Positions 39,103 to 41,648 of a DNA stretch of 64,000 bases are shown in pieces. Source of the DNA: Thermoflexus hugenholtzii JAD2 (GTDB lineage: Bacteria; Chloroflexota; Anaerolineae; J036; Brachytrichaceae); contig CAMDWA010000003.1 of NCBI GenBank assembly GCA_945877855.1, forward strand, positions 1 to 64,000, given 5' to 3'. A program made the position numbers and the translations under genes. The stretch's first letter is position 1. Every line of letters starts with the position of its first letter. A model generated the notes under the pieces. It was not told the DNA's origin and did no database searches. It worked only from the letters and a program-made list of their open reading frames with translations.

Positions 39103-39410
39103 GTAGAGACGGGTCGGTGACCCGTCTGGGATGTGACCCATCTGGGATGTGACCCGTCTGGGATGTGACCCATCTGCGATGTGACCCATCTGGGATGTGA
39201 CCCATCTGGGATGTGACCCATCTGCGATGTGACCCATCTGCGATGTGACCCGTCTGCGATGTGACCCATCTGCGATGTGACCTGTCTGCGATGTGACCTG
39301 TCTGCGATGTGACTCGTCTGCGATATGGCAAGGATAAGATAAGTGATTTTTTTCTGGTATTTTTGTCTTTGGTGTGGCAAAAATAAGACGGGTCACCGAC
39401 CCGTCTCTAC
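39103..39410. repeat. 16-bp minisatellite bounded by 25-bp terminal inverted repeats
   Basis: Thirteen tandem copies of GACCCATCTGGGATGT-like units (39119-39326), with A/G, G/C and C/T variants, are enclosed by GTAGAGACGGGTCGGTGACC... at 39103-39127 and its exact complement at 39386-39410. Each end is itself palindromic (GACGGGTC-GGT-GACCCGTC). The GTAGAGACG edge resembles small palindromic repeats common in filamentous bacteria. It fills most of the 394-bp gene-free gap at 39059-39452; three overlapping open frames in it are repeat artefacts. Confidence 0.92.
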
Positions 39411-39452: not shown

Positions 39453-40964
39453 ATGAACACGCTAGGCAAATATAAAATTTTGGGGGCGCTTGGGTCGGGG
39501 GCATTTGGCACGGTATATCGTGGGGTAGACCCGGTATTGCAACGCGAAGTGGCGATTAAGGTGCTGCAACCGCAATGGGCTGCCAATGCCCAAATTCTCG
39601 AACGGTTTCGGCGGGAAGCCATTGCAATGGCACGGCTGCGCCACCCGAATATTGTGACGGTGTATGAGCTTGAAAATCTCGAAGGCATGGCCGCTTTTGT
39701 GATGGAGTATGTGCATGGCAATACGTTGGCCAAACATATTCCGAGTGGTGGCATGTCGTTGCGGCAAGCTTTGCCCATGATCGAGAAGCTGATTGATGGG
39801 TTGACAGAGGCACACGCCAAACATATTTTGCACCGTGATCTCAAACCCGCCAATATTTTGGTGGAGCAAGCCAGCAACCGTCCGGTCATTACCGATTTTG
39901 GCCTTGCTAAACTGCGTGATATGAGCAGCATGAGCAGCGGTGCGGGCATGGGCACTCCGCTGTATATGGCTCCCGAATTGTGGGATGACGGTGAGGCCAG
40001 CCCGGCCAGCGATGTGTATGCCATGAGCGCGGTGATTTATGAGATGTTGACCGGTAAGCCGTTATTTGCCGCCAATAACATGATGGCGGTGATGAAGAAG
40101 CATATGGATGGGGCACGGCTGGATGACTTGCCTGATCGCAGCTTGCGCAATGCCTTGCTGAGTGGCTTGGCGACCCAAGCCAGCCAACGGGCCACGCTGG
40201 CGAACTTGTTGGCTGGCTTGAAGGCAGCTGCGGGAGGTGGGGCCGTGCAGCCGGTGGCGGCAGCACCGGTTGTGCCAACCAACGCTTTTCGTAATGCGGC
40301 GCAAGTTGTGGGTGAACTGATCCGTATTCCTGCTGGAAATTTTATGTATGGGGATGATATATGGCATCCCAAGCAAACCCGTTATTTGCCGGAGTATTAC
40401 ATTGGCAAATATGTGGTCACCACGGCCCAGTTTTGGGCCTTTGTCAAAGCCACTGGGTTTAAAGGTGATGGCCATTGGGGGAGTGGCAATGAGGCGTGGT
40501 TAAAAAGTTACCCCGACCATCCTGCGGTGAAGGTAAATTGGGATGATGCCAATGCTTTTTGTGCTTGGGCCAGCCAGAAGACGGGTTTGGGCATTCGTTT
40601 GCCGAGTGAGGTGGAATGGGAAAAGGCGGCGCGTGGCACGGATGGGCGCACTTACCCATGGGGTGAAGCCAAGCCGGATGCCAGTCGTGCCAATTATGAC
40701 AAATCTTATGATTTGGAAAATCTAAGCCGAGTGGGGAGTTATCTGGCGGGCAACAGCCCGTATGGTTGTGCCGATATGGCAGGGAATGTATGGGAATGGT
40801 GTGTGGATTGGTATGATGATAAAAAAAGCGGGCGCGTGGTGCGCGGCGGTTCGTTCAGCTACAATGGAGGCCCCCTGCCCTGTGCCGCCCGCAGCCACTA
40901 CGACTCTCCGTCCCCCCGCAACCTCTGCAACGGTTTTCGGCTTCTTGCGTCCCCCTTCTCATAG
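39453..40964 (+). CDS. Ser/Thr protein kinase fused to an FGE-sulfatase/C-type-lectin-fold domain
   Basis: About 503 aa. Residues 1-265 are a Hanks-type kinase: GSGAFGTVYRG, VAIKV, HRDLKPANI (about 126), ITDFGLAK (about 148) and GTPLYMAPELW. An Ala/Val/Pro linker leads to an FGE-sulfatase domain (about 287-503): IRIPAGNFMYGDD, RLPSEVEWEKAARG, YPWGE, DMAGNVWEWC, VVRGGSF and NGFRLLAS. It has no transmembrane segment. The final 35 or so codons change abruptly to C-ending codons (see the variable-region entry), which points to a retroelement-diversified ligand-binding face coupled to kinase signalling. An in-frame GTG at 39414 is rejected because it precedes the kinase N-terminus by 13 unrelated residues. 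Confidence 0.9.
   Translation: MNTLGKYKILGALGSGAFGTVYRGVDPVLQREVAIKVLQPQWAANAQILERFRREAIAMARLRHPNIVTVYELENLEGMAAFVMEYVHGNTLAKHIPSGGMSLRQALPMIEKLIDGLTEAHAKHILHRDLKPANILVEQASNRPVITDFGLAKLRDMSSMSSGAGMGTPLYMAPELWDDGEASPASDVYAMSAVIYEMLTGKPLFAANNMMAVMKKHMDGARLDDLPDRSLRNALLSGLATQASQRATLANLLAGLKAAAGGGAVQPVAAAPVVPTNAFRNAAQVVGELIRIPAGNFMYGDDIWHPKQTRYLPEYYIGKYVVTTAQFWAFVKATGFKGDGHWGSGNEAWLKSYPDHPAVKVNWDDANAFCAWASQKTGLGIRLPSEVEWEKAARGTDGRTYPWGEAKPDASRANYDKSYDLENLSRVGSYLAGNSPYGCADMAGNVWEWCVDWYDDKKSGRVVRGGSFSYNGGPLPCAARSHYDSPSPRNLCNGFRLLASPFS
40855..40964 (+). other. Candidate DGR variable region (VR)
   Basis: This is the 3' end of the kinase-FGE gene, the position where DGR variable repeats occur in FGE/C-type-lectin proteins. 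From the serine after RGGSF onward about 20 of 28 codons are NNC (agc, tac, ggc, ccc, cac, gac, tcc, ctc, tgc), as expected if AAC codons of a template had their adenines replaced. The codons just upstream are mostly tat, gat, aaa and ggg. CGCAAC, AACGGTTTTCGG and the tail stay family-like. No reverse transcriptase or template repeat was seen in this window. Confidence 0.6.
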
Positions 40965-40970
40965 CTCTGT

Positions 40971-41049
40971 CCTCTGAATCTCTGATCTCTGATCTCTGAT
41001 TTTTGATCTACAGCGAGCCTAATCCGGGGGTTTGGGGCGATAGCCCCAA
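40971..41049. repeat. TCTCTGA heptamers and a short GATA-loop hairpin
   Basis: Tandem units CCTCTGA, then TCTCTGA three times and TTTTTGA (40971-41006), without an opposite arm. Downstream, TTGGGGC-GATA-GCCCCAA (41032-41049) forms a 7-bp stem with a 4-nt loop. It lies between the kinase-FGE stop and the DinJ operator. Confidence 0.65.
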
Positions 41050-41085: not shown

Positions 41086-41367
41086 ATGAACAGTGCATCT
41101 ATTCATGTTCGTCTATCTCCTGATCTAAAACAACAGTTTGAGCAGACCTTAGCCCCGCTGGGGCTAGGCATGTCAGAGGCAATTAAATTGTTTGTAACGC
41201 GAGTGGTGGCTGAAAAGTCACTTCCGTTTATGGTGAAAGTCCCTAATGCGGCACTAGCACAGACTATTCATGATGCAGATCAGGGGGTTGGTCTGATTGG
41301 CCCGTTTGATGACGTTGCTGCGGTCATGCGTTTCTTGGATGACGACACGATTGATGATGACGCATGA
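41086..41367 (+). CDS. RelB/DinJ-family antitoxin
   Basis: About 93 aa. The N-terminus SIHVRLSPDLKQQFEQTLAPLGLGMSEAIKLFV is a ribbon-helix-helix DNA-binding fold of the DinJ type. The middle segment ending in LPFMVKVPN is typical, and the C-terminus is very acidic (FLDDDTIDDDA), as expected for a toxin-neutralising tail. The open frame starts upstream, but ATG 41086 gives the correct N-terminus. It overlaps the toxin gene as ATGA. Confidence 0.88.
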   Translation: MNSASIHVRLSPDLKQQFEQTLAPLGLGMSEAIKLFVTRVVAEKSLPFMVKVPNAALAQTIHDADQGVGLIGPFDDVAAVMRFLDDDTIDDDA

Positions 41368-41648
41368 GCCGGAAAATAGTATTGACGAAAGCCTTTAATC
41401 GTGGCTATAAACGCATGATTAAACGCGGTAAAGATAAACGAAAGCTGGAGACTGTGCTTAATTTGTTGGCTAATGATGAAGCGTTAGAAAAGCGCTATGC
41501 TGATCATGCATTAACGGGTAATTTCTCGCATTGTCGGGAGTGTCATATTGAGCTTGATTGGTTGCTCATTTATCAGTTTTTTGATGAGGGTGATAGGTCG
41601 ATTTTGCGACTGAATGACACGGGCAGTCATAGCGACTTATTTGATTAA
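41364..41648 (+). CDS. YafQ-family mRNA interferase toxin
   Basis: The 94-aa protein has the RelE/YafQ fold with the YafQ catalytic residues: DHALTGNF (His near residue 47), CHIELDWLLIYQF (His and Asp, about 60-65) and DTGSHSDLF (His near 87). It should cut mRNA on the ribosome. The start overlaps the DinJ-like stop by 4 bp. All active-site residues are present, so the toxin appears intact. Confidence 0.9.
   Translation: MSRKIVLTKAFNRGYKRMIKRGKDKRKLETVLNLLANDEALEKRYADHALTGNFSHCRECHIELDWLLIYQFFDEGDRSILRLNDTGSHSDLFD

What the first reader, a model, noticed from the sequence alone, without database searches (positions are those of the whole stretch)
40855..40964. Possible diversity-generating retroelement target: C-terminus of a kinase-FGE fusion
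Seen: the last ~35 codons of the kinase-FGE gene switch abruptly to C-ending codons (about 20 of 28 are NNC), while the 20 codons before use tat, gat, aaa and ggg. The change begins right after RGGSF and ends at NGFR, the usual variable window in FGE/C-type-lectin DGR proteins. Known: DGRs replace template adenines, turning AAC into NNC, typically at the 3' end of such genes. Inferred: the face is diversified and feeds a kinase signal. No reverse transcriptase or template lies here, so it would be a remote target.
Basis: partly seen in the sequence, partly recalled or inferred. Interest (0 to 1): 0.85.

Follow-up and report, generated by a model that had tools for sequence, protein, structure and literature searches.

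The report
Hypermutated tail of a kinase-sensor gene
The end of this kinase gene from a Chloroflexi bacterium is a patch that a bacterial "mutation machine" (a diversity-generating retroelement) rewrites while leaving the rest of the gene alone. The mechanism is known, but here it is shown clearly by comparison with an almost identical gene in a sister genome.

Summary
The finding holds up. Gene 39453-40964 encodes a Hanks-type kinase fused to an FGE (C-type-lectin-fold) domain, and its 3' end (40828-40953) is a DGR variable region (VR).

A sister Chloroflexi genome (REEB501, here G003) has the syntenic ortholog, 96% identical in protein. The genes differ at 20 of 1404 bases outside the VR, but at 20 bases plus one codon indel within 73 bases of the VR, 19 of them at codon positions 1 and 2. 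G003 also holds a matching template (TR4) beside an Avd gene. Against TR4, the window VR differs at 17 of 30 template adenines and only 2 of 72 other bases (p = 1.6e-9).

The window's own genome holds three intact DGR cassettes (RT, Avd, template), one on the same contig just past the window end. Each matches its own VR with mismatches almost only at adenines, but none is this VR's template. TR4 is absent from this 79%-complete assembly, so the gene is a remote (trans) target.

Kinase-CLec remote targets are known from cyanobacteria: a new member of a known kind. One possibly new lead: a CTCTG-repeat array follows 12 of the 16 FGE genes here, and none of four templates.

The parts
39453..40964 (+). 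Variable protein gene: Ser/Thr (Hanks-type) kinase fused to an FGE/CLec-fold domain, 503 aa
   Evidence: PF00069 E=1.5e-47 (aa 7-220), PF03781 E=3.7e-44 (aa 288-498). The sequence shows GSGAFG, VAIK, HRDLKPAN, DFG and APE kinase motifs. Ortholog L143 / G003:C14 is 96% identical.
39471..40112 (+). Protein kinase domain
   Evidence: Pfam PF00069, aa 7-220
40314..40946 (+). FGE-sulfatase (CLec-fold) domain that carries the VR; lacks the cysteine pair of active FGEs
   Evidence: Pfam PF03781; model pLDDT 80 and pTM 0.84, Foldseek matches to FGE, ToxD and the DGR variable protein TvpA 2y3c; in the sequence alignment the CHxSYC stretch of active FGEs has no counterpart in this protein (read by eye)
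40828..40953 (+). DGR variable region (VR), stretch homologous to template TR4, including 20 bp of 5' and 22 bp of 3' perfectly matching flank
   Evidence: 17/30 template adenines changed, 2/72 other bases changed, hypergeometric p=1.6e-9
40857..40931 (+). Variable core of the VR (25 codons, one codon longer than the TR4 template, extra codon in its AAC run at about 40891-40904)
   Evidence: 20 substitutions and a 3-bp indel against the ortholog; placement of the extra codon
40932..40953 (+). Invariant VR 3' end GGTTTTCGGCTTCTTGCGTCCC (candidate IMH, site of cDNA priming/integration)
   Evidence: Identical in VR and G003 TR4, then the two diverge; position of the IMH inferred from known DGRs
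40965..40998 (+). CTCTG-repeat array immediately 3' of the stop codon
   Evidence: the only cluster of 4 or more CTCTG within 80 bp in the 64 kb window (both strands); 12 of 15 such arrays in the genome follow FGE genes
41032..41049 (+). GC-rich inverted repeat TTGGGGC-GATA-GCCCCAA (candidate homing hairpin/cruciform, or a terminator)
   Evidence: and the sequence: 7-bp stem, 4-nt loop matching GRNA (PMC3240598), but about 80 bp from the VR instead of 4-34

Best explanation
The 3' end of the kinase-FGE gene is the variable region of a diversity-generating retroelement, diversified in trans. Template RNA (TR4 family, AAC-rich) is reverse-transcribed by a DGR RT with Avd. Template adenines are misread, and the cDNA replaces 40828-40953, anchored by the matching 22-bp 3' end. 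SHOWN by sequence: adenine-specific TR/VR mismatches, a hypervariable patch in an otherwise near-identical ortholog, a template plus Avd in the sister genome, and three working-looking RT/Avd/TR cassettes in this genome. INFERRED: that an RT acts on TR4 in trans, that this genome has or recently had its own TR4, that the FGE surface is a ligand-binding face, and that binding modulates the attached kinase, most plausibly as a sensor of invaders or neighbours.
For: Ortholog: 20 substitutions in 1404 bp outside the VR versus 20 substitutions and a codon indel in 73 bp inside, 19 of the 20 at codon positions 1/2; flanking genes vary mainly at position 3. The locus is syntenic at 97-98.5% nt identity in blocks on both sides. 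TR4 in G003:C407:11588-11692: window VR 17/30 A vs 2/72 non-A, p=1.6e-9; the G003 VRs C14 13/30 vs 1, C407b 15/30 vs 0, C249 19/30 vs 0; C106 fits with no non-A mismatch once a 1-nt deletion is allowed. TR4 sits beside an Avd gene (NF033474 97.5 bits, cut-off 80). Paralogs window and C67 agree at all but 2 non-A template sites although their upstream FGE DNA is only 64% identical. A synonymous site (40919) is C in both G000 VRs that use this tail and T in the G003 TR and its VRs, as expected if each genome copies from its own template. In the same genome TR1 and TR3 match their adjacent VRs with 17 and 19 adenine-only mismatches, and TR2 matches a remote VR on another contig, C29, with 14 A and 1 non-A mismatches. 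RT motifs IGNLTSQ and YVDD (sequence; RT1 checked). No TR4 codon can mutate to a stop.
Against: TR4 itself is not in the window's assembly and no RT is found in the G003 assembly, so no single genome shows RT + TR4 + this VR together. One non-adenine change (T to G at 40887) is shared by both orthologs and is not explained by simple full-length replacement. No read-level diversity within one population could be examined.
Confidence: 0.94

Rival explanations
1. Relic target: the region was made by a DGR in the past, but TR4 has been lost from this lineage and the VR is now frozen, with variation generated only in the sister lineage.
For: TR4 not found in G000. The ortholog of the G003 gene beside TR4 lies on G000 contig C6 next to a second similar gene, with no template match there. 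RT-less or decayed loci occur (C149 holds a broken RT C-terminal fragment). A frozen-paralog model has been proposed for cyanobacteria (PMC7517822).
Against: The assembly is only 78.7% complete, and several contigs end at or near VRs. The G000-specific C at 40919 in both VRs fits copying from a G000 template, although it could also be the ancestral base. The VR frame is intact, with no stops.
Confidence: 0.3
2. Ordinary FGE divergence under positive selection or local recombination, without a DGR.
For: FGE/CLec C-termini are variable in general, and surface loops can evolve fast.
Against: Selection does not confine changes to positions that are adenine in a separate non-coding copy (p=1.6e-9). 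It does not keep 70 of 72 non-adenine sites fixed between paralogs whose neighbouring sequence is 64% identical.
Confidence: 0.01
3. Codon-usage artefact, for example a laterally acquired GC-rich 3' end or an assembly chimera.
For: Abrupt NNC codon use.
Against: The ortholog in an independently assembled MAG has the same structure and the same flanks. The NNC pattern equals the AAC codons of the template with the first two bases randomised.
Confidence: 0.005

Closest known systems
Cyanobacterial DGR remote variable proteins with an N-terminal Ser/Thr kinase and a C-terminal CLec domain (Vallota-Eastman 2020, PMC7517822)
   Same: Kinase + CLec architecture, VR at the very 3' end of the gene, remote from the RT, several paralogs per genome
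   Different: Chloroflexi rather than cyanobacteria; the template for this gene was identified only in a sister genome; the ortholog pair gives a direct before/after comparison
[quoted passage not shown]
   Same: Several DGR cassettes per genome, trans-diversified targets, effector domain + FGE/CLec sensor architecture; this genome also has an EAD7-TIR-FGE target beside the C3 cassette; filamentous Chloroflexi are mentioned there
   Different: No STAND/MoxR ternary system was looked for around this gene; its neighbours are acyl-CoA dehydrogenases and a toxin-antitoxin-like pair
Bordetella phage BPP-1 DGR (target recognition, PMC3240598)
   Same: RT + Avd + TR, adenine mutagenesis, 3' anchored retrohoming, GC-rich hairpin 3' of the VR with a GRNA loop in this gene
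   Different: Hairpin about 80 bp from the VR instead of 4-34 bp; several other VR families here have 3-nt loops; the CTCTG array was not among the passages of that paper I read
Treponema denticola variable protein TvpA (PDB 2y3c)
   Same: FGE-type CLec fold carrying a DGR VR at its C-terminus (profile match E=1.1e-50; Foldseek E=4.3e-11)
   Different: No kinase domain; from my own knowledge it is a surface lipoprotein

Membership tests
Diversity-generating retroelement target (VR of a variable protein) | Template repeat (TR) nearly identical to the VR | tested here: met
   G003:C407:11588-11692; 83 of 102 aligned bases identical, perfect flanks of 20 and 22 bp. Not present in the window's own incomplete assembly.
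Diversity-generating retroelement target (VR of a variable protein) | Mismatches confined to template adenines | tested here: met
   17/30 A vs 2/72 non-A, p=1.6e-9; one of the two is a genome-specific base shared with the other G000 VR of this family
Diversity-generating retroelement target (VR of a variable protein) | DGR-type reverse transcriptase in the genome | tested here: met
   Three intact RTs of 361-380 aa in G000 with IGNLTSQ and YVDD motifs. None in the G003 assembly. Which RT serves TR4 is unknown.
Diversity-generating retroelement target (VR of a variable protein) | Avd accessory protein | tested here: met
   NF033474 above cut-off for C3 and for the G003 copy beside TR4; homologs at C65 and C186
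Diversity-generating retroelement target (VR of a variable protein) | VR at the 3' end of a CLec/FGE-fold gene | tested here: met
   PF03781, model and Foldseek
Diversity-generating retroelement target (VR of a variable protein) | IMH and 7-10 bp GC hairpin with a 4-nt GRNA loop, 4-34 bp 3' of the VR | tested here: inconclusive
   Hairpin with GATA loop present, but about 80 bp away; 0 of 4 templates have such a hairpin; it could be a terminator
Diversity-generating retroelement target (VR of a variable protein) | Ongoing diversification in a population | not testable with these tools
   No reads; only the between-genome comparison
Hanks-type Ser/Thr kinase | Intact catalytic motifs (VAIK lysine, HRD, DFG, APE) | tested here: met
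   Pfam PF00069 E=1.5e-47; motifs read in the sequence
Catalytic formylglycine-generating enzyme | Copper-binding cysteine pair after RGGS (CHxSYC) | tested here: not met
   active FGEs read RGGSYLCHDSYCNRYRVAAR; this protein reads RGGSFSYNGGPLPCAAR, without the pair, so it is a scaffold, not an FGE

The most novel reading that the evidence does not exclude
In this Chloroflexi lineage all DGR targets, whatever their template family, are marked by a shared 3' element (a CTCTG-repeat array plus a GC hairpin). This lets a small set of RT/Avd complexes, and templates that stand without an RT as in G003, rewrite many dispersed sensor genes in trans. The array would be a previously undescribed homing signal.
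Probability: 0.15. Interest if true: 0.65.

Novelty: new member of a known kind. Interest (0 to 1): 0.47.

Why it matters
It extends kinase-linked, remotely diversified sensors from cyanobacteria to Chloroflexi. It also supplies a clean natural experiment: two syntenic orthologs, 96% identical in protein, that differ sharply almost only where the template has adenines. The genome carries about 16 FGE genes in roughly nine VR-tail families with three assembled templates, so it is a good system for asking how DGRs choose remote targets. If the CTCTG array is a targeting signal, target choice would become predictable from DNA.

Tried and rejected
(a) The on-contig cassette TR1, and TR2 and TR3, as template for this VR: rejected. 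Their 3' tails differ, and a position-by-position scan of the loci found no usable alignment to this VR (best non-self: C67, offset by its missing codon). (b) Direct template search in the own genome by BLAST and by a tail pattern: no TR4. (c) RT beside TR4 in G003: none by Pfam RVT_1, by RT protein, or by tblastn on the G003 loci held. (d) Synteny search for the G003 TR4 locus in G000: the neighbouring gene is on C6, with no template match there. (e) Full-length AlphaFold model: poor for the kinase (mean pLDDT 53) and not used; the FGE-only model is usable. (f) A global alignment profile of the whole syntenic block is dominated by a non-homologous insert at about 41.1-41.9 kb, so the per-gene counts were used instead. 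(h) PADLOC hits of the kinase (for example PD-T4-6) look like generic kinase-domain matches and are not taken as evidence of defence function.

Full report
What was checked. The region 40855-40964 is the 3' end of ORF 39453-40964. Pfam finds a protein kinase domain (aa 7-220) and an FGE-sulfatase domain (aa 288-498). In the 25 codons 40857-40931, 19 end in C, against 21.6% in the rest of the gene and at most 10 in any other 25-codon stretch of it.

DGR machinery in the genome. The window is bases 1-64000 of contig C3 in a 246-contig, 78.7%-complete MAG. Three RTs are present, at C3:66948-68033, C186 and C65. They carry the DGR-like IGNLTSQ and YVDD motifs (sequence). Avd homologs stand near each; the C3 one passes the NCBIfam Avd model. 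Each cassette has an AAC-rich template. TR1 and TR3 match their adjacent VRs with 17 of 29 and 19 of 35 adenines changed and no other change. TR2 matches a VR on a different contig (C29) with 14 adenine changes and one other change, so remote targeting occurs in this genome. The C3 cassette starts with an EAD7-TIR-FGE target at C3:64564, just past the window end.

This VR has another template. None of TR1-3 fits the window VR. Its partner is a second kinase-FGE gene on C67 with the same 3' tail. From these two VRs I predicted a template; it is not in the own assembly, but it hit a same-genus genome, G003, at 91% identity. There, C407:11588-11692 reads GGTTCGTTCAACAACAATGAAGACAACCTGCCCTGTGCCTACCGCAACAACAACAATCCGACCAACCGTAACATCAACAACGGTTTTCGGCTTCTTGCGTCC. 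It lies beside an Avd gene and an FGE target. G003 corresponds to MAG REEB501: the contig length and gene coordinates agree.

Test of the mechanism. Against this template the window VR changes 17 of 30 adenines and 2 of 72 other bases (p=1.6e-9). The G003 VRs give 13 vs 1, 15 vs 0 and 19 vs 0; a fourth (C106) fits without any non-adenine change if one 1-nt deletion is allowed. No template codon can become a stop. The window VR is one codon longer than the template, in the AAC run, which is plausibly a slip during cDNA synthesis (inference).

The ortholog as a natural experiment. REEB501 carries the same locus (colinear blocks at 97-98.5% nt identity around the gene) and a 96%-identical protein. 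Outside the VR, 20 of 1404 bases differ. Inside 40857-40929, 20 bases and one codon differ, 19 of the 20 at codon positions 1 or 2, whereas neighbouring genes differ mainly at position 3. Base 40919, a synonymous site, is C in both G000 VRs of this family and T in the G003 template and its VRs, as expected if VRs are overwritten from each genome's own template. Base 40887 is G in both orthologs and T in the template; this one change is unexplained.

Fold. The FGE-domain model (pLDDT 80, pTM 0.84) matches FGEs, ToxD and the DGR variable protein TvpA. The cysteine pair of active FGEs is missing. The domain is therefore best read as a binding scaffold whose former active-site edge is diversified (inference).

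3' element. Arrays of CTCTG follow 12 of the 16 FGE genes; only three other such arrays were found in the 4.4 Mb genome, and the reversed control pattern gives none. In the 64 kb window the only dense cluster is the one behind this VR. I found none after the four templates. GC hairpins follow at least 11 of the 16 genes within about 130 nt, against 1.2% of random 130-nt windows and 0 of 4 templates. In this gene the loop is GATA, which fits the GRNA loop required in BPP-1 (PMC3240598), but it lies about 80 bp from the VR instead of 4-34. A terminator role is not excluded, and shared descent of duplicated target genes could explain the array without any function.

What is known. Kinase-CLec remote targets are described in cyanobacteria (PMC7517822). 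Trans diversification and FGE, TIR and kinase sensors are described in multicellular bacteria (PMC10907252), where filamentous Chloroflexi are mentioned. Roux et al. note that their metagenome survey cannot see remote targets (PMC8144416). This is therefore a new, well-supported member of a known kind.

What stays open: where TR4 is in the window's own genome, which RT serves it, whether it is active now, and what the kinase does with the signal.

Noticed in passing
G000:C3:64564-68770 (L031 4565-8771), just beyond the window end: Complete DGR cassette on the same contig: EAD7-TIR-FGE target, RT, Avd, TR1; TR1/VR differ at 17 adenines and nowhere else.
   Followed up: yes
window 40965-40998 and the 3' side of 12 FGE genes: CTCTG-repeat array tightly associated with DGR targets across different template families; none seen after the four templates.
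   Followed up: partly
G000 contigs C29, C45, C61, C65, C67, C114, C116, C125, C127, C144, C149 (x2), C186, C28: About 16 FGE genes in roughly nine VR-tail families, with three templates assembled: a large repertoire of probable remote targets. Several contigs (C114, C116, C125, C127) end in or near a VR.
   Followed up: partly
G000:C149:5364-5564 (L036 5451-5558): Broken C-terminal RT fragment between two VR genes: remnant of a decayed DGR cassette.
   Followed up: no
G003:C407:11588-12100 (L078): Template and Avd without any RT detectable in a 94%-complete genome: either an assembly gap or an RT-less unit.
   Followed up: partly
G003:C106:7632-7735 (L080): An FGE target whose VR fits the template only with a 1-nt deletion, which shifts the frame: possibly a failed retrohoming product.
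   Followed up: no
window 41086-41648: Two-gene RelB/YafQ-like toxin-antitoxin pair directly after the target gene (named by eye, not searched); the stretch at about 41.1-41.9 kb does not align with the ortholog contig L143.
   Followed up: no
window 39118-39330: Tandem array of a roughly 16-bp unit (gatgtgacccatctgg) upstream of the kinase gene.
   Followed up: no
window 40887: Non-adenine T-to-G difference from the template shared by both orthologs; not explained by full-length template replacement.
   Followed up: no
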